Shown: piece by piece, positions 7,659-26,754 of the stretch
How the letters are laid out: each line of letters begins with the position of its first letter
Numbering within the stretch: position 1 is the first letter of the stretch
Source: a virus
IMG/VR virus record: IMGVR_UViG_3300012954_002008
Coordinates: 1-27,272 of that record
Direction: 5' to 3' (one strand)
Length of the DNA stretch: 27,272 nt
Position numbers and translations under genes: made by a program
The notes under the pieces: generated by a model
Told to the model about the DNA's origin: nothing
Seen by the model: the letters and a program-made list of their open reading frames with translations, nothing else
Database searches by the model: none

Positions 7659-9722
7659 ATGGCATATACTATTAACTATACCGACATTACTAATAAGGGT
7701 AGTATTGCTATCGAGGATAACACTACCGATACATCTACTTCATTACAGATTCCAGGTAGGTTTACAACAGATTACGGTGCGTTAATTGGTCAAAACTTTT
7801 TACAACTATTAGAAAACTTTAGTAATAGTTCAGCACCAGCAAGACCAGTTGAAGGACAACTATGGTATGATACTTCCATTGGTATTAACATTCTTAAAAT
7901 TTATGATGGTACTAACTGGATTGAAGCCGGCGGATTAAAACGTGGCGACTCAGCACCAGACGTAGCAAATTCAGTTGCAGGTGACTTATGGACAGATACA
8001 GATAACCAACAGTTATATTTGTTTACAGGTTCAGGTTGGATTTTAGTAGGTCCAGAATTTAGTGATGGATTAGCGGCAGGTGTAAGACCAGCAACTATCA
8101 CAGGTACTGACAATATTAATTACACAGCATTGAAAGTTGAGATTGGCGGTAAGGTTGTTGCAATTTATGCCACAAGTGCATTTACTCCAAAGGCAACCAT
8201 TGCAGGCTTTTCAACAGTAAATCCAGGATTTAATTTAAGTTCAGCAGATATTACAGGTGCAGGCGTAGGAAAATATTACGGTGTATCAGAGAAAGCAGAA
8301 AACTTAATTGTAGGTTCAACTACAGTAGCGGCATCAAACTTTTTAAGAGGTGACGTTGCAAGTATTTCAAATGCAAGTTTACAAATTAAAAATAACATAG
8401 GTGTTAGCATTGGTAGTGATGCTGTTGTTCAAATAGGTATTGAAGGACAGAATGCTATTATCTCAAATAATACATCAGGTGCAAACATTGATTTAAGAGT
8501 TAACAATGCAGGAAACTTACAACCTGTATTAAGAATTGACTCAACACAAAAAGTTGGTATTAACAACTTATCGCCAGCAGAAGCATTAGACGTAACAGGT
8601 AATGCTATTGTATCAAACAATCTTGTTATTAATGGTATTGCAGAAGCAGTTAACACTGGAACAGGTGCAATTACTACAACAGGTGGTATTGGTATTGCAA
8701 AGAGTGCGAGAATAGGAAACAGTTTAGAAGTAGGTGGTACAACTACATTAGGTGATACAGTATTACCAGACACTTCAAACACAGTTAACATTGGTAGTTC
8801 AACATTAAAGTTTGCAGAAATTAATGCAAACACTGTAAAAGCAAACTTGGTAGGTAACGTAACTGGTACAGTTACAGGACGTTCAGGAAGTTCAGATAAA
8901 CTTGCTTCAAGAACAACATTCCAAATTTCAGGTGATGTTACAGCACCGCCAGTTATTTTTGACGGACAATATAGTGCGCCAGGCGAAACTACACTTGTTA
9001 AAGAATTTGATATTAGTATCAACAGTACATTTATTACAAACAAAGAATCAGTACCAACATCAAGATTTGATGACGAATTCCTTGTTAACAGAGTTAACGA
9101 TGAAAACGGTAGTGGAACAGGTATTAAGAAACTTTCAAGAAGTAACTTGTTTAGTGCTTTACCAGTTAACCCAGTTGGACTTATTACACCATATGCAGGT
9201 AATGCCGCAACAGTGGCATTATTAAATGGTTGGTTGTTATGTGATGGTAGTGAAGTGTTTATTGTTGATTGGCCAGAACTTTATGATGTTATTGGTACAT
9301 CATTCAAGGCTAATCCTGCATTAGGTAAATTTGCGTTACCAGACTTACGTGGTAGATTCCCACTTGGTATGGATAACATGGGTACAACAGCAGGACCGGC
9401 AAACAGAGTTACAGATGAAAACGCTGATACGATTGGTGGAACAGCAGGTGTTGAGAAGAAACAAATTCAAGTTGACGAACTACCAGAACACGAACACGAT
9501 ATGCGTGGACCAAGTGGAACACAATATTACGCAACAAGAGATGTACAAGGTGCACCAGTAGATGCAGATGCTACAGTGGCAGACGCACCGCAAGGTACAG
9601 ATGCAGGACAAAAGTTTCCATTCTCAGGTGGAGTGGTAAGCAACACAGCAGTTGGGCAAGACTTTAATGTAATGAACCCGTACTTGGCAATTAACTATCT
9701 AATTTATGCGGGGGCAAAATAA
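7659..9722 (+). CDS. Tail fibre with C-terminal phage tail-collar domain, 687 aa
   Basis: Residues 1-130 form the module shared with the next two genes: MAY-INxTD start, QNFLQLLENF, then GQLWYDT..LKIYDGTNW near 66 and a second copy GDLWTDT..LYLFTGSGW..VGP near 108. The middle (about 140-500) is a repetitive beta-rich shaft with Gly, Asn, Thr and Val in short strands. About residues 504-575 are a clear phage tail-collar domain: PVGLITPYAG, GWLLCDGSEV, FALPDLRGRFPLGMD. A HEHD motif near 611 and the ending NPYLAINYLIYAG are typical of collar-domain fibres, including T4 short tail fibre gp12. The protein probably trimerises and binds the host surface. A GAGGG ribosome-binding site lies just upstream; the gene overlaps the next by one base. 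Confidence 0.9.
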   Translation: MAYTINYTDITNKGSIAIEDNTTDTSTSLQIPGRFTTDYGALIGQNFLQLLENFSNSSAPARPVEGQLWYDTSIGINILKIYDGTNWIEAGGLKRGDSAPDVANSVAGDLWTDTDNQQLYLFTGSGWILVGPEFSDGLAAGVRPATITGTDNINYTALKVEIGGKVVAIYATSAFTPKATIAGFSTVNPGFNLSSADITGAGVGKYYGVSEKAENLIVGSTTVAASNFLRGDVASISNASLQIKNNIGVSIGSDAVVQIGIEGQNAIISNNTSGANIDLRVNNAGNLQPVLRIDSTQKVGINNLSPAEALDVTGNAIVSNNLVINGIAEAVNTGTGAITTTGGIGIAKSARIGNSLEVGGTTTLGDTVLPDTSNTVNIGSSTLKFAEINANTVKANLVGNVTGTVTGRSGSSDKLASRTTFQISGDVTAPPVIFDGQYSAPGETTLVKEFDISINSTFITNKESVPTSRFDDEFLVNRVNDENGSGTGIKKLSRSNLFSALPVNPVGLITPYAGNAATVALLNGWLLCDGSEVFIVDWPELYDVIGTSFKANPALGKFALPDLRGRFPLGMDNMGTTAGPANRVTDENADTIGGTAGVEKKQIQVDELPEHEHDMRGPSGTQYYATRDVQGAPVDADATVADAPQGTDAGQKFPFSGGVVSNTAVGQDFNVMNPYLAINYLIYAGAK

Positions 9723-17670: not shown

Positions 17671-17912
17671 AAATTAGGTACTATCGAAATATTAAGGGGT
17701 GGCGTTGGTTAGGATTTTTTCTTGCCATGGCATCTGCTTATATTTTAAGTAGTGGTAATCCTGACTACCAGGTTATGGGTTGGAGTGTTGCATGTTTCAG
17801 TTGTGGCATTTGGATTTACATGGGTTGGAAAGACGGAGATACACCACGTGCATTGATGGAACTGTTTTATTTGGTACTTGCTATACGTGGAATTATTAAC
17901 TGGATTCAATGA
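17667..17912 (+). CDS. Small three-helix membrane protein, 81 aa
   Basis: After a basic N-terminus (MKIRYYRNIKGWRW) I see three hydrophobic segments at about residues 13-29, 36-52 and 62-79, separated by an NPDY turn and a GWKDGDTP loop. The positive-inside rule puts the N-terminus in the cytoplasm. I recall near-identical small proteins in marine T4-like phages, always of unknown function; the size and topology loosely resemble half-size transporters of the PnuC/SWEET kind, but no substrate motif is present. It overlaps the glycosyltransferase gene upstream and the radical SAM gene downstream by four bases each, so it is translated with them and may be a membrane partner of one. Confidence 0.7.
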   Translation: MKIRYYRNIKGWRWLGFFLAMASAYILSSGNPDYQVMGWSVACFSCGIWIYMGWKDGDTPRALMELFYLVLAIRGIINWIQ

Positions 17913-19276
17913 GCGAAGTAGAAAGAATAAAGCAGATAATGCCAGAGGTCGATAAGATCTCTCCTACTTTCTGCTTGGCTAAATGGCACCACGTAACAAT
18001 ATATTTGCAAACAGGAGAAACACACAGTTGTTATCACCCAGCACCACATAAGATTCCGCTTGAAGGATTAATTGACAATCCAAGTCAACTACATAATACA
18101 CCGCAAAAGAAACAAGAACGTAAACAAATGCTTGAAGGCGAAAAGCCAAGCGGTTGTCAGTACTGTTGGAATATTGAATGTATGGGTAAGGACTATATTA
18201 GTGATAGACATATTAAAACAGCAAGTATATACACACCTAAACGTATTGAAGAAATAAAAAGCAATCCATGGGATTATAATATTAATCCAGAATACATTGA
18301 AATAAATTTTAGTAATGAATGTAATTTTAAATGCGGTTACTGCCATCCTAAGTTTAGCAGTAGATATTATAACGAAATTAAAAAAGAAGGTCCATATACA
18401 GATGTATCTGCACACCGTAATGACATTGATTGGTTTGAATTATATGAAGAAGAAACTAATCCTTATGTAGAAGCATGGTGGAAGTGGTGGCCAGAAGTTA
18501 GTAAGACACTAAACATCTTACGTGTTACAGGCGGCGAACCTTTAATGCACAAAAGTACTTGGCGTTTGTTTGACGAACTTGAAGCAAATCCTAAACCACA
18601 TATTCAAATTGAAGTAAACAGTAACATGGGTGTTAAGGAATCTCTTGTACACAAACTTGTAGAACGTGTAAAAGAACTTAAAGCAAAGAACTGTATAAGA
18701 AGTTTCAAACTATACACAAGTATAGATACTTGGGGACCTAAAGCAGAATACACAAGACGTGGATTAGATATTGAACTATGGGAAAAGAATTTAGATTACT
18801 ATCTAACTGAACTTGGTTATCCTGTAACGTTTATGATTACATTTAACTTGTTTGCTGTAACAAGTTTTGATTTATTGCTTAATAAAATACTTGAATGGCG
18901 TAAGAAGTACACAAGATCTAATGCAGGTGTACAATGGCAAAACATTAGATTTGATACTCCTTATCTAAAAGAGCCAATACAGTTTGACATGAACATATTA
19001 CCTAAGGATCAGTTTGTTCCGTACATGACAAGGCACCTACAGTTTATCGGAGACAACGTTGATGACAATGACCGCCATAAGTTTAGTTTGTTGGAGTATG
19101 AGCGTTTTAGACGTGTTGTAGACTATATGCGTACAACTACTTACGATGATAAGAAGTTAGCAATAGGACACAAAACTTTTTATAATTGGTTTACACAATA
19201 TGATAAACGTAGCGGTAGTAGTATTGTTAAAACTTTTCCAGAACTTAAAGAATTTTATGATTCTTGTAGATCTTAG
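17909..19276 (+). CDS. Radical SAM enzyme with N-terminal Cys cluster, 455 aa
   Basis: The radical SAM core carries the cluster cysteines Cys138, Cys142 and Cys145 (CNFKCGYC) and the SAM-contacting GGEP at about 208-211. Unusually, a second group of cysteines precedes the core: Cys22, Cys41 (THSCYHP), Cys83 and Cys86 (CQYC), with Cys91 close by, enough to bind an auxiliary Fe-S cluster. Such auxiliary ('twitch'-type) clusters usually follow the core. The TIYLQTGETHSCYHP pattern is one I recall from marine-phage twitch-domain radical SAM proteins. The reaction is not predictable; relatives modify peptides, sugars or cofactors. It ends in TAG and runs 32 bases into the 3' end of the opposite-strand glycosyltransferase gene. 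Confidence 0.85.
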   Translation: MSEVERIKQIMPEVDKISPTFCLAKWHHVTIYLQTGETHSCYHPAPHKIPLEGLIDNPSQLHNTPQKKQERKQMLEGEKPSGCQYCWNIECMGKDYISDRHIKTASIYTPKRIEEIKSNPWDYNINPEYIEINFSNECNFKCGYCHPKFSSRYYNEIKKEGPYTDVSAHRNDIDWFELYEEETNPYVEAWWKWWPEVSKTLNILRVTGGEPLMHKSTWRLFDELEANPKPHIQIEVNSNMGVKESLVHKLVERVKELKAKNCIRSFKLYTSIDTWGPKAEYTRRGLDIELWEKNLDYYLTELGYPVTFMITFNLFAVTSFDLLLNKILEWRKKYTRSNAGVQWQNIRFDTPYLKEPIQFDMNILPKDQFVPYMTRHLQFIGDNVDDNDRHKFSLLEYERFRRVVDYMRTTTYDDKKLAIGHKTFYNWFTQYDKRSGSSIVKTFPELKEFYDSCRS

Positions 19277-20264
19277 AAGCAAGAATTTGATTGTGTGTTA
19301 ACACATCATTCATTTCATTTAACATTTCTTTACAGTCATCAATACTTAATAACTTAATGCTATCTAACAAGTAACGTATTTTGTTCATACGTTTTGTATG
19401 ATCTTCTTCAGTATCGTAACTTTCGTCCCAAGTAAATGTTTTAAATCCTAACTCACGAATGTATTCTAATGTATAAGGTGGTGCAACGCAAACAAAAGGA
19501 CGTTTATGTATCATTGCGTTAACAGTTTTCTCACTAAAGTTTCCTGTAGGCTGATAGAAACGTGTTTCGTTTGCCACAACGCAAAAACTTTTTTCATAGT
19601 AAGCAGATAAACTTGCTGGTCCGTTTAGTTGTCCTATAGGCCATTTTTTATGTGCAGGGTCTACACTTTGTAATTCTGTATCAATGCTTAATGCTGGATC
19701 ACTAAATGCCCAACTATAGTAACCTGGTGTATCTTGTAAATGTTCTATTATCAAACGTCTGTGTAAACTATAACGCCAATTAGGACAAATAAAGTGTTTA
19801 TCAATATTGTTGTTAACATTAACAATACCGCCGTTAAATTGATTGCGTAAAAATATATCAAAACATTTAAGTTCAAACGGATAGTAATCTATATGTTTGT
19901 TTACATTATAATCACAAGTGTATACAGTAATTTCTGCATTTAGTTTTTTACTAAATTCTAAAATGCTGTCTAATTCATCAGCACGTAATTTTTCTCCGCC
20001 TTGAAATTCGCTAAAGAAATCTCTGTTATGCTTTTTACCATCTTCGTATAATGTTAATGGTTCGTACAAATATATGTTAAGTTTTTTAAGTTTCTTTACC
20101 ATTTTAGGAGTAAGAGGAAACTTATCAAAGTCTATATTATTTGTACCTGTGTATATAATAAAAGGATCTTTAGGAAACCAATGTTCAAACAGTTCAGTAA
20201 ACATTGAACCTAACTTTGTAGATTTTACAGGAAGGTTACCCCAGAATATATCTTGTTTGAACAT
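19245..20264 (-). CDS. Probable glycosyltransferase, exostosin/fucosyltransferase-like C-terminus, 339 aa
   Basis: Last gene of the minus-strand operon. The C-terminal half has the sequence pattern of nucleotide-sugar transferases with a GT-B-like fold: FCVVANETRF, then FSEKTVNAMIHKRPFV near 243-258 and YIRELGFKTF near 268-277. That is the FSEKT..P..PF..LGF arrangement seen in exostosin- and GT10-like enzymes. A basic segment CPNWRYSLHRRLII near 160-173 may contact phosphate groups. It would use an activated sugar in the cytoplasm, and its place after three sugar-modifying genes makes it the likely transfer step. The start shares one base with the upstream stop (TAATG), implying coupled translation. 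Alternative: a non-catalytic relative; substrate unknown. Confidence 0.65.
   Translation of the reverse strand: MFKQDIFWGNLPVKSTKLGSMFTELFEHWFPKDPFIIYTGTNNIDFDKFPLTPKMVKKLKKLNIYLYEPLTLYEDGKKHNRDFFSEFQGGEKLRADELDSILEFSKKLNAEITVYTCDYNVNKHIDYYPFELKCFDIFLRNQFNGGIVNVNNNIDKHFICPNWRYSLHRRLIIEHLQDTPGYYSWAFSDPALSIDTELQSVDPAHKKWPIGQLNGPASLSAYYEKSFCVVANETRFYQPTGNFSEKTVNAMIHKRPFVCVAPPYTLEYIRELGFKTFTWDESYDTEEDHTKRMNKIRYLLDSIKLLSIDDCKEMLNEMNDVLTHNQILASKIYKNHKIL
19260..19286. terminator. Inverted repeat at convergent gene ends, possible bidirectional terminator
   Basis: ATTCTTG (19260-19266) and CAAGAAT (19280-19286) can form a 7 bp AT-rich stem with a 13-base loop holding an AGATCT palindrome. It sits where two convergent genes overlap, where a bidirectional terminator is expected. 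No clear U-tract follows and the stem is short, so the call is weak. Confidence 0.25.
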
Positions 20265-20758
20265 TACCAGTAAGTGCCGGTGATTTGTAAAGTGTATCTT
20301 GGATCAACTCCAATGTTGCTGGCCGCATGTGGAGTATCAGGTTGCCATAAAACATATTCACCTGCCTTCCAATTTACAAATGCTTTACTATCTACTTCAA
20401 AGTAGTGTCCTGGTTTCCAGTCTTCTAAGAAAACAATAGCACGTCTTACTTCGTCACGCTTTTTATTAAACACTTTACAATATGTATTATAATGATCAAC
20501 GTGTGTAGGCATGATATCTAACGTATCCATTTTATAAAATACAAAACCAGGATTATGTAAATTAAGTAATTGTGCTACTTGAATTGCATAGTCAGGCATT
20601 GGATTACGACTGTCATACATTTTGCCTGTTGTATTTTCATGCGTATAGCCTTGCTTACGCCAAGTGTCAGACTCTGCACCTGTAATAGGTTGTCTAACGT
20701 AATTGAAGTATTTGTATCCTTCGTCCCATATTACAGGACATTTACCTTTAGTCCACAT
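20264..20758 (-). CDS. 2OG-Fe(II) oxygenase-like protein, 164 aa
   Basis: A compact double-stranded beta-helix protein. The iron ligands would be His86 and Asp88 (THVDHYNTY) and His144 (DTPHAASN), with Arg154 (RYTLQIT) placed to bind 2-oxoglutarate. The strands between them, AIVFLEDWKPGHYFEV and GEYVLWQPDTPHA, fit the fold, and the HxD..H..R spacing is typical of small phage and prolyl/asparaginyl-hydroxylase-like dioxygenases. It probably hydroxylates or oxidises a small molecule or a protein residue. Here it sits between an amidinotransferase and a glycosyltransferase, so a sugar intermediate is a reasonable guess. It overlaps the upstream gene by 11 bases and the downstream by one. The length is at the short end of the family but the core is complete. 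Confidence 0.75.
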   Translation of the reverse strand: MWTKGKCPVIWDEGYKYFNYVRQPITGAESDTWRKQGYTHENTTGKMYDSRNPMPDYAIQVAQLLNLHNPGFVFYKMDTLDIMPTHVDHYNTYCKVFNKKRDEVRRAIVFLEDWKPGHYFEVDSKAFVNWKAGEYVLWQPDTPHAASNIGVDPRYTLQITGTYW

Positions 20759-21716
20759 CTCTTTTTGTATCCAATGTTACGCAGTGAAATCCACCGCCAA
20801 GTGTACGTTGATGTCGCATTGGTAACATAGCACACTCTATTCCGTGGTGCTCAAGAAGGTGTCTTAGATCCTCTTGGTGTTCTTCTAATGCAACTAACTT
20901 TGTATTTACACTAAACAAGTTCATGTTAATCCATGTACTTGCATTACACCATTTAGGATAGTGTCCAATGTCTACAGGTTCAGGACACCATATAATATCC
21001 CAATTTCTAAATGGCTCAGGTAAGTCTTCTCTTACTTTTATTCTACTTGGATTAACAAGTAATAATCCTTCACGTAAAAATGCAACAGTACTGTCAATAT
21101 GCATGTAACTATAAACATTTTGTAATAGGTTTACTTTAGCAGTAGCACCTAAGGCACCTTGTAATAAATTTGCACCTAACTTGTTTGCACTATTACTAAC
21201 CAAGTATAACAGTTGGTCGTTTGCACGAATTATATTCGCGGCATCAAAAGCAGGACTGTATTCATTAAGTGCTAAAATATCTTTATTGCCAATACATTCT
21301 TTGTTGTATAATTGACTTTCGTTGAAGCAACGTATTTCTTTTGGATTATCTAAATGATCTTCAAATGCTCTCCACTCGCCTTTTCTTGCACGTATAGGCA
21401 TTGGTGTAGCAAGTGTTAAGTTACCATGTATAAACACACTGTCTCGAGGACAGTAATTATAGTAATGACAATCTGTTTTCTCTGGACGTACAACTTCTAC
21501 ACTTTCTGCTTGTAAAAATTTTACAAATGTTTCTAAGTCTTCATTTGCTTCTTCAATAACTTTACTTGGATAAGGACCTTTGATAATTTCTGTTTCGTCT
21601 TTTTTATCTGCAAAATTAACACAACGTAAACTAATATCTATATCATAAGGTATCTTGGCTTTGTCTGCAATGCCAACAATTACTTTTCTAAGTTGTCCCC
21701 ATTCGTTTGTGTTCAT
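20748..21716 (-). CDS. Amidinotransferase, glycine/inosamine type, 322 aa
   Basis: The fold is the pentein family, in which an amidino group is moved from arginine to an amine through a cysteine thioester. Conserved features appear in order: Arg91-Asp92 (CPRDS), Asp158 (PAFDAAN), His206 (YMHIDST) and Cys312 (GGGFHCVTLD). Asp158, His206 and Cys312 align with the Asp-His-Cys triad of glycine amidinotransferase, whose motifs are FDAAD, HID and FHC. The ending right after the catalytic cysteine, TLDTKRDVD, is normal for the family. Arginine deiminases share the triad, but the MHIDST and FHCVT forms favour transfer. The preceding gene makes an amine by transamination, so the acceptor may be an amino sugar. 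It overlaps its neighbours by 4 and 11 bases. Confidence 0.85.
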   Translation of the reverse strand: MNTNEWGQLRKVIVGIADKAKIPYDIDISLRCVNFADKKDETEIIKGPYPSKVIEEANEDLETFVKFLQAESVEVVRPEKTDCHYYNYCPRDSVFIHGNLTLATPMPIRARKGEWRAFEDHLDNPKEIRCFNESQLYNKECIGNKDILALNEYSPAFDAANIIRANDQLLYLVSNSANKLGANLLQGALGATAKVNLLQNVYSYMHIDSTVAFLREGLLLVNPSRIKVREDLPEPFRNWDIIWCPEPVDIGHYPKWCNASTWINMNLFSVNTKLVALEEHQEDLRHLLEHHGIECAMLPMRHQRTLGGGFHCVTLDTKRDVD

Positions 21717-22297
21717 TTAAAAACCTTCATGTCAGGAAGATATGGATAATCATTACTGCTCCATTCCTTTGTTGGTTCAGTAACGTTTTCTAATTTTTCA
21801 ATACCAAGTTGTGCAGTTTCTGGAGTCATATAATAATGATATCCTATGTATTGAATGTCTTGTTCGCCCCATGGCTTATCATCTGTTCTACCATCATGTG
21901 CCATTGCTTTTAATACTGCATAGTCTGTTTCATTAGGACATAATATTGCACCGCCTCTACCTAAACTTAACATTTTCTTATGTTGAAAACTTAAACACTT
22001 ATAGGTATTAGGCATATAACTATTACGTTTGAAACTAACAGCACCGTCTATAATTCTTGTACCACCTAATACATATTCTTCTGTCCAAGAAGCATCAACA
22101 AACTCCCAATCAATGTTTAACTTCATTAATGTAAATGGAATACTAATATACGTTCTTGTAGGTATCTTTACGTGGTTAGGCTTTAGATATCGTAAGCAAA
22201 GTTCAATAGAATGGGTGCAACTATCCGTTGCTACGGCAAATGGTGCATTATAATACTCTGCAATGCGTTTTTCGAACTCTTTCACGGTTTCAAACAT
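21713..22297 (-). CDS. Minimal DegT/DnrJ/EryC1/StrS-type aminotransferase, 194 aa
   Basis: A PLP-dependent sugar aminotransferase-like protein. Numbering from the upstream ATG at 22303, I see a phosphate-binding DSCTHSIEL at 27-35, an Asp86-Gly-Ala motif that would pair with the PLP ring nitrogen, and SFQHKKMLSLGRGGAI at 105-120. Lys110 aligns with the catalytic lysine of SFHPTKN, and GRGGA with the conserved GEGGA (Glu replaced by Arg). The family is normally 370-400 residues with the lysine near 185, so both ends and the C-terminal domain are shortened; I recall other marine-phage members this short. I chose ATG 22297, not 22303, because the late promoter covers 22303-22310; 22297 leaves no leader. 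The ATGA overlap couples it to the amidinotransferase. A non-catalytic role is possible. Confidence 0.75.
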   Translation of the reverse strand: MFETVKEFEKRIAEYYNAPFAVATDSCTHSIELCLRYLKPNHVKIPTRTYISIPFTLMKLNIDWEFVDASWTEEYVLGGTRIIDGAVSFKRNSYMPNTYKCLSFQHKKMLSLGRGGAILCPNETDYAVLKAMAHDGRTDDKPWGEQDIQYIGYHYYMTPETAQLGIEKLENVTEPTKEWSSNDYPYLPDMKVFK

Positions 22298-22302
22298 ACA
22301 CA

Positions 22303-22310
22303 TATTTATA
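22303..22310 (-). promoter_or_regulatory. Perfect T4-type late promoter element TATAAATA for minus operon
   Basis: Read on the minus strand, 22310-22303 is TATAAATA, an exact match to the T4 late consensus recognised by the phage gp55 sigma. I noticed no other exact match in the window. Five bases separate it from ATG 22297, which is where T4 spacing would put the first transcribed base, so the mRNA would have essentially no leader. It is well placed to drive the four-gene operon ending at 19245. Confidence 0.7.
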
Positions 22311-22394: not shown

Positions 22395-23579
22395 ATGAAC
22401 ATAGGATTTATAGGAGTCGGTAAACTCGGAATACCATGTGCAGAAGAAATAGTCAAAAAAGGTCATACAGTTTTTGGTTATGATACTGCTAAAATTACCA
22501 GCGAATTAATTATACAAAAACCTACAATCAAAGATGCAGTAACTGGTGCAGACATTGTGTTTGTTGCAGTACCAACACCGCATCACGAAGACTATGACGG
22601 TAGACGTCCTACAAGTCATTTACCACCAAAAGATTTTAATTACGATATTGTAAATGATGTTCTTGAAGAAGCAGACATGCATATGACAAAGGATCAATTG
22701 CTTGTTCTTATCAGTACAGTATTACCAGGTACAACACGTAGAGAATTTGTACCACGTGTTACACATACACGTTTTGTATATAACCCATATCTAATTGCAA
22801 TGGGTACTGTAGGTTGGGATATGATTAATCCTGAGATGGTAATGATAGGAACTGACGATGGTAGCGAAACAGGTGACGCAAAACAATTAAAAGAATTTTA
22901 TCAAAGCATTATGGAAAATGATCCACGCTATGTTATAGGAACATATGACGAGTGTGAATGTATCAAAGTGTTTTACAATACATTTATTTCTACTAAATTA
23001 AGTTTTGTTAATATGATTCAAGATGTTGCACAACGTCAAGGTAACATTAATGTTGACGTAGTAACAAAAGCCTTAGCAGAAAGTACACAACGTATAATGA
23101 GTCCTGCATATATGACAGCAGGCATGGGCGATGGCGGCAGTTGCCACCCAAGAGATAATATTGCTTTACGTTACATGGCAAAAGAATTAAATTTAGAATA
23201 TGATATCTTTGATAACATTATGAAAGCAAGAGAAATACAAGCAAAAAATCTTGCAAAGTTTGTTGTTGAAACAAAAAAGAAATATGGCGGTAGCATTTTC
23301 TTAAATGGTATATCATACAAACCAGGCGTACCTTACATTGACGGAAGTTATGCACTGCTTGTTGATCACTATGTTAAGGAACTTGGACACAGTATGATTT
23401 ACATTGATCCACTTGCAAGTGAAATGCCAAGTAGCCAAGTAAGCCTTGGAGGTATTATTTTACTTGCACACCCAACTCCATACTTAGATTACTCAACAGA
23501 CTCAGTGTTTATTGATCCGTGGAGAAAAATGAAACCTGATCCTAAGTATCTTGTCATACAATACGGAAACACAAGATAA
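22395..23579 (+). CDS. UDP-glucose/GDP-mannose dehydrogenase family protein, altered active site, 394 aa
   Basis: The three-domain layout is intact at normal length. The NAD site is GVGKLG at residues 7-12, Asp30 ends the second strand, and VAVPTP sits near 57. Lys191 and Asn195 (KVFYN) align with catalytic Lys and Asn of UDP-glucose dehydrogenase, and Cys250 with Asp254 in GGSCHPRD align with the thiol nucleophile and its aspartate; the usual Lys before that Asp is Arg253. The PEFL motif that supplies a catalytic Glu in the family is NPYLIAM here (residues 130-136). The reaction may therefore be a single oxidation, or use an unusual substrate. GGAGAG upstream gives a clear start. The stop overlaps the next start by one base. 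Confidence 0.85.
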   Translation: MNIGFIGVGKLGIPCAEEIVKKGHTVFGYDTAKITSELIIQKPTIKDAVTGADIVFVAVPTPHHEDYDGRRPTSHLPPKDFNYDIVNDVLEEADMHMTKDQLLVLISTVLPGTTRREFVPRVTHTRFVYNPYLIAMGTVGWDMINPEMVMIGTDDGSETGDAKQLKEFYQSIMENDPRYVIGTYDECECIKVFYNTFISTKLSFVNMIQDVAQRQGNINVDVVTKALAESTQRIMSPAYMTAGMGDGGSCHPRDNIALRYMAKELNLEYDIFDNIMKAREIQAKNLAKFVVETKKKYGGSIFLNGISYKPGVPYIDGSYALLVDHYVKELGHSMIYIDPLASEMPSSQVSLGGIILLAHPTPYLDYSTDSVFIDPWRKMKPDPKYLVIQYGNTR

Positions 23580-24391: not shown

Positions 24392-25068
24392 TCTTCATAA
24401 GTTACGGCGAACCAAACGCTGATGAAAACTGGAAACATATTAAGCAAATGTTTCCTATGGCAAAACGTGTAAAAGATGTTAAAGGTTTACATCAAGCACA
24501 CATTGCCGCGGCTAAAAAATGTTTTACAAAAATGTTCTGGGTTATTGATGCTGATGCAGAGTTAATGCCAGACTTTGATTTTAATTTTGAGGTTTCCGAG
24601 TGGGATTTAGAAACAGTTCATGTATGGCGAAGTATAAATCCAATCAACGACTTGGAATACGGGTATGGAGGTGTTAAGTTATTACCGCGATCACTCACAC
24701 TGAACATGGACACTTCCATGCCCGACATGACTACAAGTATCAGTGATAAGTTCAAAGCAATGCCAGAGATAAGTTGCGTAACAGGATTTAACACTGATCC
24801 TTTGAGTACTTGGCGTGGAGCATTTAGAGAATGTGCAAAATTAGCAAGTAAAACTATTCCAGGACAAGTAGATGAAGAAACAGAGAAGCGTTTAGAAACA
24901 TGGCTTACTGTTGGTGCTGACAGACAGTACGGAAAGATTGCAATGCACGGAGCGGCATGTGGTAAGCAATTTGGAGAACACTATAGAGGCAATGTAGAAG
25001 CACTTGCAATGTTAAATGATTTTGATTATTTAGAAGAGGAGTTTAATGAACACAAAGATTCCTTTTAA
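24379..25068 (+). CDS. Glycosyltransferase-like protein, SYxEPNAxENW type, 229 aa
   Basis: This is the paralogue of the gene at 16783. The start reads MYDIVFISYGEPNADENW, with AKRVKDVKGLHQAHIAAAKK and an Asp57-Ala58-Asp59 metal motif (FWVIDADAEL). Later landmarks match the longer relative: GYGGVKLLPR near 94, WRGAFRECAKLA near 144-155, WLTVGADRQYG near 174. It is about 65 residues shorter, mostly in the middle and C-terminal region. AAGGATAA lies just before the ATG. It is followed at 25046 by a radical SAM gene, the same pairing as at 16783-19276. The probable role is transfer of a sugar to a protein or glycan; the acceptor is not known. Confidence 0.75.
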   Translation: MYDIVFISYGEPNADENWKHIKQMFPMAKRVKDVKGLHQAHIAAAKKCFTKMFWVIDADAELMPDFDFNFEVSEWDLETVHVWRSINPINDLEYGYGGVKLLPRSLTLNMDTSMPDMTTSISDKFKAMPEISCVTGFNTDPLSTWRGAFRECAKLASKTIPGQVDEETEKRLETWLTVGADRQYGKIAMHGAACGKQFGEHYRGNVEALAMLNDFDYLEEEFNEHKDSF

Positions 25069-26005
25069 GGATATTGTCAGCCTTGGACAAAAGACAATGC
25101 TGGATACTAATCTATTCAGCGTTAGTTGGATCCTCGGCAGGTTTTGTAATTACAAGTGTAGTTACTGTTGGCCTTATGCTAACACTGACAAGCCAGATTA
25201 TCAGGAATTAGAAATTTATAAAACATCAATAGATGAAATTAAGAAACAAGCAAAAGCAAATGGCTTTGACAAGTTTCATTTTAGTTTTAGTGGAGGAGAG
25301 CCTACAGCATACAAAGGCTTTTTAGATTTAGTTAATCACTATGAAGATTATGAAAGTGAATACCTAAGCATACACATGACAAGTAATTGTAGTCCAGCAA
25401 AGAAATGGTGGAAGAAGTTTTTAGATGTTACAGATGTTATGGATAGAAGAAGTATTACAGCAAGTTTTCATGCAGAATTTGCAAATGAAAAAGAATTCGG
25501 AGATAAACTTTTGTATCTCCAAGACGAAGGTGTACTTGTAACTATTAATCAAGTTATGGTACCCGAACTATGGGAGGAATATTATGCCAGAAGTAAAAGA
25601 TTTATTGAACGGGGTTTACACGTTACTCTTAAGCCTCAGTCTGATCCTACCGCTTCTTTTGTGGTTGATGGTTATACCGAGGAACAAAAAGAAATATTGC
25701 GTACCGAAAGCGAACAATCGGTCCATCAAGTATCGCTCAAAGATGTTAATGGAGTAGAATACAGTATTGACCAAGCAGAAAGATTAAATGCTTTTGGTTT
25801 TAATAAATTTAAAGGTTGGGAATGTAATAGCGGATATCAAAGTTGCATAATTAGAAACAACGAAGTTAAACGTAGTTACAGTTGCCATGATACACCATTA
25901 GGAACACTAACTGAAGGGTTCAGTTTGTTTAATAAGCCAATGCCTTGTATTACACCAAGTTGTGTAAGCAGTGCAGATAGCAAAATACCAAAGAGAAAAA
26001 TATGA
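25046..26005 (+). CDS. Radical SAM enzyme with C-terminal Cys cluster, 319 aa
   Basis: Cys34, Cys38 and Cys41 (CNYKCSYC) bind the radical SAM [4Fe-4S] cluster and GGEPT at 83-87 contacts SAM. The C-terminal 60 residues hold five cysteines, Cys260, 267, 280, 301 and 306, in WEC..SC..YSC..PC..SC order, a SPASM-like arrangement that could hold an auxiliary cluster. Enzymes of this layout often modify peptides or act in sugar-derivative pathways; the substrate cannot be read here. AGAGGAG before the ATG supports the start, and it overlaps the glycosyltransferase by 23 bases. A stretch near 25560-25740 uses codons (acc, tcg, ctc, cgg, ccc) rare elsewhere in the window. Confidence 0.85.
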   Translation: MNTKIPFKDIVSLGQKTMLDTNLFSVSWILGRFCNYKCSYCWPYANTDKPDYQELEIYKTSIDEIKKQAKANGFDKFHFSFSGGEPTAYKGFLDLVNHYEDYESEYLSIHMTSNCSPAKKWWKKFLDVTDVMDRRSITASFHAEFANEKEFGDKLLYLQDEGVLVTINQVMVPELWEEYYARSKRFIERGLHVTLKPQSDPTASFVVDGYTEEQKEILRTESEQSVHQVSLKDVNGVEYSIDQAERLNAFGFNKFKGWECNSGYQSCIIRNNEVKRSYSCHDTPLGTLTEGFSLFNKPMPCITPSCVSSADSKIPKRKI

Positions 26006-26754
26006 AAATAGGAATAGCAGGATACGGATATGTAGGCAAAGCCATTGCTGAAAGTATGAAACACAAATATGAAGTTATGATTAATGATCCGGCACTTGGT
26101 CATAAGGATAGTCTTAAAGAAGTACAAGCACTTATAGTCTGTGTAAGCACACCTCGAAGTTCAGCAGGGTATTGTGTAATGGATAATGTGTATCAAGTAA
26201 TAGAAAAAGCATCTAACGAGATTCCTATACTAATTAAAAGCACAATTAGTCTTGAAGGTTGGCGTATGCTTAAAGATACTTTCCCTGAAAAAGAAATAAC
26301 ATTCAGTCCAGAGTTTTTAACTGCCGCAAATGCAACTCAAGACTTTGCAAACACACAACAAGTTTTACTTGGCGGCGATAACACACACTTTTGGTCAGGA
26401 TTTTTTGTAGACTTACTTGGAACTATTGATGTAAAGATAGCAAATCCAGAAGATCTTGTTTTAGCCAAGTATGCACGTAACAGTTATCTTGCATTAAAGG
26501 TTACATACTTCAATCAATTGAAAGACGTATGTGAAAAAGCAGGTGTAGACTTTGAACAAGTAAGGAAATATGTTGCAGATGACTCTCGTATAGGATACAG
26601 TCATACTAATGTAACAAAAGAACGTGGCTACGGCGGGCATTGTTTGCCTAAAGACGTAGATGCATTCTTACATCAAGCGAAAGGATATAATACTGAACTT
26701 TCACTGCTTGAAGAAGCAGTTAAATATAATAGTAAGATTAGAAATGAAAATTGA
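26002..26754 (+). CDS. UDP-glucose dehydrogenase family protein, two-domain form, 250 aa
   Basis: The NAD site is GYGYVG at residues 7-12. Catalytic residues look canonical: Glu104 in SPEFL, Lys156 and Asn160 in KYARN, Cys214 and Asp218 in YGGHCLPKD. The protein stops shortly after the central helical domain, so the C-terminal nucleotide-sugar domain present in full-length enzymes (390-450 residues) is missing. A related family member at 22395 is full-length but has a changed active site. Either this short form acts alone on a simpler substrate or it borrows a domain from a partner. It overlaps the radical SAM gene by four bases and the methyltransferase gene by 11. Confidence 0.8.
   Translation: MKIGIAGYGYVGKAIAESMKHKYEVMINDPALGHKDSLKEVQALIVCVSTPRSSAGYCVMDNVYQVIEKASNEIPILIKSTISLEGWRMLKDTFPEKEITFSPEFLTAANATQDFANTQQVLLGGDNTHFWSGFFVDLLGTIDVKIANPEDLVLAKYARNSYLALKVTYFNQLKDVCEKAGVDFEQVRKYVADDSRIGYSHTNVTKERGYGGHCLPKDVDAFLHQAKGYNTELSLLEEAVKYNSKIRNEN

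What the first reader, a model, noticed from the sequence alone, without database searches (positions are those of the whole stretch)
19245..22310. Candidate phage guanidino-sugar operon: aminotransferase, amidinotransferase, 2OG oxygenase, glycosyltransferase
Four genes on the minus strand, with 4, 11 and 1 base overlaps behind a perfect late promoter, form a logical order: make an amine (DegT/StrS type), add an amidino group from arginine (Asp158-His206-Cys312 triad), oxidise (HxD..H..R), transfer. In streptomycin synthesis a StrS-family aminotransferase and the amidinotransferase StrB1 make a guanidino-cyclitol by this pairing. A late-expressed phage operon that would give a cationic guanidino-sugar, to decorate fibres or host glycan, is to my knowledge not described. 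Order and motifs are seen; the pathway is inferred.
Basis: partly seen in the sequence, partly recalled or inferred. Interest (0 to 1): 0.78.

Follow-up and report, generated by a model that had tools for sequence, protein, structure and literature searches.

The report
Phage guanidino-sugar cassette with half-size aminotransferase
Many aquatic phages carry a set of enzymes that looks built to make an amino sugar, cap it with a positively charged guanidino group as in streptomycin synthesis, and attach it to something, using an aminotransferase only about half the usual size.

Summary
In detail: four minus-strand genes with 4-, 11- and 1-base overlaps behind the window's only TATAAATA. AmT has its full catalytic triad and forms a clade with StrB1, apart from GATM and HsvA. 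The aminotransferase is about half a DegT enzyme (194-196 aa), yet its model (pLDDT 94) fits sugar-nucleotide aminotransferases, and PLP lysine and aspartate are kept in 151 of 151 distinct relatives. It was not found in 694 bacterial genomes of two phyla. Of 65 distinct phage AmT loci, 61 have the mini-aminotransferase, 57 the oxygenase-like gene, 58 a glycosyltransferase of one of two kinds. In five loci oxygenase and glycosyltransferase are one polypeptide, in four directly after AmT. In sister phages the mini-aminotransferase sits beside GDP-mannose-4,6-dehydratase-like, formyltransferase or sugar-acetyltransferase genes instead, which argues for a 4-amino-sugar product. Best reading: a guanidino sugar is made and transferred; activities, sugar and acceptor are inferred. 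A cyclitol-type dehydrogenase showed once in 33 records, weakly: StrB1-like chemistry, not a streptomycin pathway. Ten open-access literature searches found no such phage pathway.

The parts
21713..22303 (-). Mini-AT: half-size DegT/StrS-type aminotransferase (196 aa from the first ATG; 194 aa from the conserved start at 22297). PLP lysine K110, aspartate D86, S105.
   Evidence: Pfam PF01041 3.5e-16; model pLDDT 94.4, pTM 0.90; VIA Z 19.2, 187 residues, 2.5 A to WlaRG; K110/D86/S105 in 151 of 151
20748..21716 (-). AmT: StrB1-type L-arginine amidinotransferase, 322 aa, triad D158-H206-C312
   Evidence: PHROG 25854 3.2e-32; PDB profile best 1bwd StrB1 361 bits vs HsvA 222, GATM 212, SxtG 204; residues; tree
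20264..20758 (-). 2OG-Fe(II) oxygenase-like protein, 164 aa, H86-x-D88...H144...R-Y
   Evidence: motif in 92 of 92 distinct relatives; weak Pfam PhyH and Asp_Arg_Hydrox in 4 of 16 members each; the S-SCSM2R relative (32%) is annotated 2OG-Fe(II) oxygenase family protein; fused to the GT in five loci
19245..20264 (-). GT-B-fold glycosyltransferase-like protein, 339 aa
   Evidence: no Pfam, PHROG, NCBIfam or PDB sequence hit, no tblastn match in 50,697 phage records; model pLDDT 84, pTM 0.86; VIA Z 10.7 T4 BGT, 10.6 TarM, 10.5 phage HY126 GT
22303..22310 (-). TATAAATA, T4-type late promoter element (consensus recalled), ending 5 nt before the conserved mini-AT start codon
   Evidence: only exact copy in the window, 3.8 expected; same place in diverged relatives

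Best explanation
The operon is a phage cassette for making and attaching an N-amidinated (guanidino) amino sugar. Step 1 (inferred): the mini-AT, a PLP enzyme reduced to about half a DegT enzyme, turns a host-supplied or phage-supplied 4-keto nucleotide sugar into the 4-amino sugar. Step 2 (chemistry supported by active-site residues, acceptor inferred): AmT takes the amidino group from L-arginine through Cys312 and caps that amine as a guanidino group, the place that some other phages would cap with formyl or acetyl. Step 3 (inferred): the 2OG oxygenase oxidises the sugar or its acceptor. Step 4 (fold shown, activity inferred): the GT-B enzyme, or GT25-like enzymes in other phages, transfers the product. 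Steps 3 and 4 are likely coupled, as they are one polypeptide in some phages. Likely acceptors are tail fibres or other virion proteins, or the host surface glycan; tail genes lie about 6 kb away on the same fragment.
For: AmT: triad and arginine-binding positions D92, D208 and R225 kept in 50 of 50 phage rows, S260 in 49; clade with StrB1, 100/97; profile much closer to StrB1 than to GATM, HsvA or SxtG. Mini-AT: PDB profile hits at E<=1e-6 are one sugar aminotransferase and three GDP-perosamine synthase sequences; fold match over the whole model. Linkage: of 66 distinct AmT loci (CP220 included) AT in 61. Contig-wide, AmT records without AT are CP220, fragments of 11.2 kb or less, and one 57-kb record with AmT at its very end; mini-AT occurs without AmT in 15 of 17 records, some over 500 kb. 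This one-way dependence fits AT before AmT. Neighbours of mini-AT in 151 distinct loci: AmT 73, GMD-like 50 (4 with a formyltransferase), NeuD/PglD-type acetyltransferase 3, none of these 25 (example proteins). Oxygenase near AT: 66 of 73 AmT loci with fusions counted, 0 of 50 GMD loci, 2 of 28 others. Oxygenase-GT fusions, four of five directly after AmT. Tail and virion genes on the fragment.
Against: No activity, product or virion glycan has been measured. AmT-linked and GMD-linked mini-ATs fall on different sides of the tree (the AmT-side fork has only 82/65 support), so the keto sugar used next to AmT may not be GDP-4-keto-6-deoxymannose; gmd is on 3 of 32 AmT-bearing records searched and the keto-sugar source for the window is unknown. 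A first mini-AT profile (17 rows) also hit the cyclitol aminotransferase BtrR at 4.3e-7 and BtrR is in the Foldseek list, so profiles do not separate sugar from cyclitol. Mini-AT lacks most of the C-terminal domain and about 45 residues of the large domain. D+3 after the PLP aspartate is V in 130 of 151, and the GYNYR asparagine is H in 135 of 151 (roles recalled). 2OG and GT identities rest on motif, fold and other phages' annotations. Loci were picked by similarity to chosen queries, so proportions are not natural frequencies; GMD, formyl and acetyl partners were called from one or two seed proteins each.
Confidence: 0.62

Rival explanations
1. AmT amidinates a non-sugar amine (free amino acid, polyamine, or a lysine side chain of a phage or host protein), for example to make guanidinoacetate or homoarginine; the sugar genes are neighbours in a general host-interaction island.
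For: HsvA (a polyamine amidinotransferase, recalled) and GATM share the catalytic triad. PMC11360552 (passages read) reports GAMT of creatine synthesis enriched in ocean viruses. Campylobacter phage CP220 carries a distant AmT among radical-SAM genes with no mini-AT.
Against: AmT groups with StrB1, not GATM or HsvA. It is tied to the mini-AT and oxygenase in dozens of differently ordered loci and with two sequence-unrelated glycosyltransferase clusters.
Confidence: 0.17
2. The mini-AT is not an aminotransferase: the truncated PLP fold is a dehydratase, an epimerase or a non-catalytic partner, and AmT uses an amine made by the host.
For: About half the enzyme is missing, including most of the C-terminal domain; GYNYR and D+3 positions are altered; the PLP dehydratase ColD shares the fold.
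Against: K110, D86, S105, G117 and G118 are kept in 151 of 151; ColD has His in place of the PLP lysine (recalled; entry titles name H188). Formyl and sugar-acetyl transferase genes next to mini-AT in some sister phages suggest an amine product.
Confidence: 0.15
3. The cassette hypermodifies phage DNA: the GT resembles T4 beta-glucosyltransferase and would add a guanidino sugar to a hydroxymethylated base.
For: T4 BGT and a phage GT are among the top three VIA rows for the GT, but tied with many others (Z 10.7 to 9.1).
Against: PF00303 (thymidylate synthase; dCMP hydroxymethylase belongs here by recall) in only 2 of 20 AmT- or AT-bearing records, absent from 246- and 249-kb ones; other hydroxymethylation routes were not searched. 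The GT is replaced by GT25-like enzymes in many loci.
Confidence: 0.06

Closest known systems
Streptomycin pair: StsC-type DegT aminotransferase plus StrB1 inosamine-phosphate amidinotransferase
   Same: An aminotransferase makes an amine that a StrB1-clade amidinotransferase caps with the amidino group of arginine (pathway recalled). On a Streptomyces plasmid a full-length DegT gene and a StrB1-like gene stand two genes apart, with a gene annotated streptomycin biosynthesis protein between them.
   Different: The phage AT is half-size; phage AmTs are their own clade with a shorter stretch before PRD; almost no trace of a cyclitol-forming dehydrogenase; an oxygenase and a glycosyltransferase are part of the set.
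GDP-perosamine synthase and N-acyl-perosamine pathways (Gmd, Per, formyl or acetyl transferase; pathway recalled)
   Same: Among the nearest PDB relatives of the mini-AT; mini-AT sits next to gmd-like, formyltransferase or NeuD/PglD-type acetyltransferase genes in sister phages.
   Different: In the window's clade the presumed capping enzyme is an amidinotransferase and no gmd-like gene is nearby.
Campylobacter Firehammervirus (CP220, CPt10) radical-SAM/amidinotransferase module, PMC2853527 (passages read)
   Same: A phage with a pentein amidinotransferase near genes noted as nucleotide-diphospho-sugar transferase folds.
   Different: 25-28% identity, far branch, no mini-AT in the 177,534-base genome.
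Synechococcus phage S-SCSM2R (PQ898602)
   Same: Carries AmT (63%), mini-AT (53%) and the oxygenase (32%) in one cluster, annotated inosamine amidinotransferase, 3-amino-5-hydroxybenzoic acid synthase and 2OG-Fe(II) oxygenase family protein.
   Different: GT25-like enzymes in place of the GT-B; genes interleaved with a radical-SAM and a glycosyltransferase gene.

Membership tests
StrB1-type (inosamine-phosphate) amidinotransferases | Asp-His-Cys triad and arginine-binding residues (GATM roles recalled) | tested here: met
   D158, H206, C312, D92, D208, R225 in 50 of 50 phage rows, S260 in 49
StrB1-type (inosamine-phosphate) amidinotransferases | Groups with StrB1 apart from GATM and HsvA | tested here: met
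   100/97 for phage+StrB1-like; phages are a 100/100 clade beside, not inside, the StrB1 rows; a plasmid protein annotated glycine amidinotransferase lies with CP220 instead
StrB1-type (inosamine-phosphate) amidinotransferases | Acts on scyllo-inosamine-4-phosphate | not testable with these tools
   needs an enzyme assay
Streptomycin-type guanidino-cyclitol pathway | Inositol/Gfo-Idh-MocA dehydrogenase forming the keto-cyclitol (role recalled) | tested here: not met
   PF01408 in 1 of 33 records, partial and barely over cut-off; records are mostly fragments and the host could supply it
DegT/DnrJ/EryC1/StrS aminotransferases | Family profile, PLP lysine and aspartate, fold of the large domain | tested here: met
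   59.8 bits vs cut-off 19.8; 151 of 151; Z 19.2 over 187 residues
DegT/DnrJ/EryC1/StrS aminotransferases | Full length, about 360-445 aa with C-terminal domain (chain lengths) | tested here: not met
   194-196 aa; 72 of 79 representatives are 192-208 aa; filed as a half-size variant
2OG-Fe(II) oxygenases | HxD...H facial triad and basic residue | tested here: met
   92 of 92 distinct proteins
2OG-Fe(II) oxygenases | Curated family profile over cut-off | tested here: inconclusive
   best PhyH 0.003 and Asp_Arg_Hydrox 0.0044, each in 4 of 16 members; PDB profile best 0.25 to AtsK
GT-B glycosyltransferases | GT-B fold | tested here: met
   Foldseek best 1.4e-4 glycosyltransferase C; VIA Z 10.7-9.1 over 215-273 residues, rows shown are glycosyltransferases or glycan synthases, GT-B by recall
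GT-B glycosyltransferases | Membership of a named sequence family, or activity | tested here: inconclusive
   no Pfam, NCBIfam, PHROG or PDB sequence hit
Glycine amidinotransferase (GATM) | Groups with GATM | tested here: not met
Arginine deiminase/DDAH | Closest relatives are ADI or DDAH | tested here: not met
   PDB profile: DDAH chains at E 0.33-0.81, no ADI chain at E<=10. Weak superfamily-level Pfam hits exist: ADI in 2 of 16 members (best 2.5e-4), DDAH in 1

The most novel reading that the evidence does not exclude
Phages have evolved a half-size nucleotide-sugar aminotransferase not seen in the bacterial genomes sampled. Its amine is capped by exchangeable enzymes (formyl, acetyl or amidino transferase), and one large aquatic lineage uses the amidino cap, with a coupled oxygenase-glycosyltransferase, to coat virions or host cells with a cationic guanidino sugar: a class of phage glycan for which I found no description.
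Probability: 0.45. Interest if true: 0.85.

Novelty: new variant of a known kind. Interest (0 to 1): 0.74.

Why it matters
If true, viruses make a permanently cationic sugar by borrowing aminoglycoside-type amidino chemistry, on fibres or host glycan where charge could alter adsorption, superinfection or grazing. The half-size aminotransferase would be a natural minimal PLP enzyme, useful for asking how much of the DegT fold catalysis needs. The different capping partners make it a natural series for testing what the cap does. The 524 IMG/VR stretches that encode an AmT relative and one cultured cyanophage make it directly testable.

Tried and rejected
Arginine deiminase and GATM readings of AmT: not supported by profile scores and tree. 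DNA hypermodification: PF00303 in 2 of 20 records. Full streptomycin or cyclitol pathway: PF01408 weak in 1 of 33; the aminotransferase profiles alone do not exclude a cyclitol (BtrR among the hits). Perosamine as the sugar in the window itself: not concluded, since GMD-linked and AmT-linked mini-ATs separate on the tree and gmd is on 3 of 32 AmT-bearing records (G008, G047, G758). Split origin of the short AT (other half elsewhere): set aside, because relatives are the same length. Ten literature searches found no such phage pathway; only passages were read, in PMC11360552, PMC2853527, PMC8226683 and PMC5513705; the rest were seen as listings. PDB search with one L017 ORF: nothing. The VIA list for the GT does not single out one GT-B family.

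Empty bacterial searches: the mini-AT profile at E<=1e-15 hit 0 of 398 and 0 of 296 genomes from two phyla (Pseudomonadota and Actinomycetota by the centre genomes), and nothing in five bacterial genomes at E<=1e-5. No bacterial genome with a known match served as control; the same profile did hit 8 of 15 viral records. Other phyla, Cyanobacteria included, were not searched.

Rows dropped before counts: only the best 80 loci per scan were kept; viral loci were dereplicated at 95% identity (66 AmT and 79 AT representatives, 151 AT); the locus of the window itself (L027) was left out of these, CP220 (L002) of the 65-locus tables, and loci L167-L184; tree rows were thinned from 50 to 25 phage AmTs and from 151 to 88 mini-ATs; rows of unusual length were left out of alignments A5 and A6.
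Full report
What is there. Four minus-strand genes, AT (21713-22303), AmT (20748-21716), a 2OG-oxygenase-like gene (20264-20758) and a GT (19245-20264), overlap by 4, 11 and 1 bases. At lower coordinates, on the plus strand, lie tail and virion genes: a Collar domain at 7659-9722 and PHROG tail, baseplate and virion-structure matches between 3 and 13318. The single TATAAATA of the window ends 5 nt before the conserved mini-AT start at 22297. Exact copies are expected 3.8 times by chance, so the argument rests on its conserved place: it is exact in 10 of 86 distinct upstream stretches, with one-letter variants in others, and not seen in the cyanophage-type loci, where AT lies inside a longer operon. 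Some rows of that scan began at an upstream start, so copies can have been missed.

The amidinotransferase. A profile of 56 rows (49 phage, 7 bacterial) hits StrB1 (1bwd) at 361 bits against 222 for HsvA, 212 for GATM and 204 for SxtG (a first profile with 16 phage rows gave 268, 193, 190 and 166). D158, H206, C312, and the positions of GATM D170, D305 and R322, are invariant in 50 of 50 phage rows; that of S355 is kept in 49 (the roles of the GATM residues are recalled). In a maximum-likelihood tree of 43 rows the 25 phage rows are one clade (100/100) that joins StrB1 and StrB1-like bacterial proteins (100/97), while GATM, HsvA and three plasmid proteins form another group (100/99). CP220's amidinotransferase lies far away on a long branch, beside a plasmid protein annotated glycine amidinotransferase. 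Arginine deiminases were not in the tree; against them stands the PDB profile search, while Pfam's ADI profile gives weak hits to 2 of 16 members.

The aminotransferase. It passes the Pfam DegT cut-off (59.8 vs 19.8 bits) but is 194-196 aa. The model from 62 phage sequences has pLDDT 94.4 and pTM 0.90. It aligns over its whole length to sugar-nucleotide aminotransferases (Z 19.2, 187 residues, 2.5 A, WlaRG), spanning residues 28-317 of a 359-residue chain, so about 100 residues are skipped and the chain end is missing. The separate profile pieces place a loss of about 45 residues in the large domain (my reading); the rest falls in the C-terminal domain. PDB profile matches at E<=1e-6 are one sugar aminotransferase and three GDP-perosamine synthase sequences; the earlier 17-row profile hit more DegT enzymes, the cyclitol aminotransferase BtrR among them (4.3e-7). 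K110, D86, S105, G117, G118, R139 and Y158 are kept in 151 of 151 distinct relatives. It was not found in 694 bacterial genomes of two phyla at E<=1e-15; the same profile hit 8 of 15 viral records.

The other two. The 2OG-like protein has HxD-x(50,66)-H-x(8,14)-[RK]Y in 92 of 92 distinct relatives but no curated family above cut-off. The GT has no sequence family; its model (pLDDT 84, pTM 0.86, residues 188-212 poor) is of GT-B fold. In L090, L105, L208 and L249, and in L263 cut by the locus end, an oxygenase domain and a GT domain of these families are one ORF. Four of them directly follow AmT; in L263 a separate GT stands between; in L249 and L263 some 830 bases lie between AT and AmT.

Linkage. 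Among 66 distinct AmT loci, 61 have AT and 57 the oxygenase. Without CP220 (65 loci), 35 have GT25-like genes (grouped by BLAST; of two members put to Pfam one hit GT25 and one hit nothing), 23 the window's GT-B kind, 58 either; AT, AmT and oxygenase share a strand in 52, and the window's four-gene order is in 17. Contig-wide, the record of L166 does have an AT; AmT records without AT are CP220, records of 5.4, 8.1, 8.4, 9.5 and 11.2 kb, and one 57-kb record whose AmT starts at its second base. Conversely 15 of 17 records with a mini-AT but no whole AmT in the locus have no AmT match, among them records of 160, 195, 595 and 642 kb. So AmT goes with the mini-AT but not the reverse, as expected if the mini-AT makes AmT's substrate.

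What the mini-AT makes. Two more scans brought the set to 151 distinct mini-AT loci. Within 6.5 kb of the AT, 73 have AmT, 50 a GDP-mannose-4,6-dehydratase-like gene (34 directly adjacent on the same strand; four loci also with a formyltransferase), 3 a NeuD/PglD-type acetyltransferase, 25 none of these. The example dehydratases score 392-401 bits against NCBIfam's gmd cut-off of 415, just below it, and far over Pfam's GDP_Man_Dehyd cut-off; the formyltransferase passes Pfam Formyl_trans_N, with ArnA its best NCBIfam match below cut-off; of two acetyltransferases one passes the NeuD model (168.5 vs 160.8) and one falls just short (155.0). No AT locus has both AmT and the dehydratase that near; L135 has both but no AT on its 8.4-kb record, and three AmT-bearing records carry gmd elsewhere. 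Eight of 65 AmT loci have another epimerase/dehydratase-like gene, a possible keto-sugar source. The oxygenase (fusions counted) is near 66 of 73 AmT-linked, 0 of 50 GMD-linked and 2 of 28 other mini-ATs. The tree separates the two classes (5 changes each against about 25 in shuffles), though the fork holding the AmT side has only 82/65 support. Fisher's p of 3e-27 ignores kinship and is not to be taken as a probability. The reading: mini-ATs make 4-amino sugars; some are formylated or acetylated or left bare, and one lineage feeds AmT.

Who carries it. The T4-like capsid family Gp23 is over cut-off in 8 of 49 records and photosystem genes in 10 of 49 (the 49 include a few AT-only records). 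The GT25-like type is thus at least partly cyanophage; two relatives of the window's type (G003, G006) have Gp23 and no photosystem gene was seen in them, but they are fragments. The window's own record is a virus record of 27,272 bases.

Known or not. GenBank already names the single genes in S-SCSM2R, and CP220's paper notes a putative glycine amidinotransferase among radical-SAM genes (PMC2853527, passages). I found no paper that describes the linked AT-AmT-oxygenase-GT set or a guanidino-sugar in phages; searches: open-access library only. Hence: new variant of a known kind (phage nucleotide-sugar/glycan cassette with StrB1-type chemistry and a half-size DegT enzyme).

Shown and inferred. 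Shown: gene order, residues, predicted folds, tree position, recurrence, fusions, alternative neighbours. Inferred: enzyme activities, the sugar, the reaction of the oxygenase, the acceptor, late expression.

Noticed in passing
L102:7963-9564 and 14 other AmT loci: A carbamoyltransferase (Pfam C-terminus 3.5e-52) is part of the cluster in 15 of 65 AmT loci, so the same glycan may also be carbamoylated.
   Followed up: partly
window 17909-19276 and 25046-26005: Two radical-SAM genes flank the island; radical-SAM-like clusters occur in 34 of 65 AmT loci. Their role is open.
   Followed up: partly
window 22395-23579 and 26002-26754: Two UDP-glucose dehydrogenase-like genes; a UGD-like gene is in 29 of 65 AmT loci. 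The second (250 aa) lacks a match to the C-terminal domain.
   Followed up: no
window 19245-19276: The GT gene and the convergent radical-SAM gene overlap tail to tail by 32 bases.
   Followed up: no
L017:88-1107(-) and L017:4372-5454(-): Two ORFs (340 and 361 aa) weakly like AmT (45 and 62 bits; the tblastn pieces lie in its C-terminal part), without Pfam hits; the second has no PDB hit. Possible diverged penteins.
   Followed up: partly
L060: Carries three AmT-like ORFs (213, 43 and 452 bits) and two mini-ATs, one cut by the locus end; the 341-aa AmT-like protein is closest to StrB1 in the PDB (3.8e-46).
   Followed up: partly
L021:5331-6008 and the same place in L018, L019, L041, L046: A gene that looks like an SGNH/GDSL hydrolase (by eye; the L018 counterpart has no Pfam hit) is inserted between AT and AmT.
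   Followed up: partly
L096:1311-2033 and six other loci: A sulfotransferase-like gene (Pfam 4.1e-7 for the L096 member) is in 7 of 65 AmT loci.
   Followed up: no
L175:6588-8429 (Paraburkholderia mimosarum): A bacterial AmT relative (41%) lies near a NodU-like carbamoyltransferase (recognised by eye).
   Followed up: no
L029:5989-6633 (Flavobacterium phage immuto): This phage has both a full-length DegT enzyme (399 aa) and a mini-AT directly before a NeuD/PglD-type acetyltransferase.
   Followed up: partly
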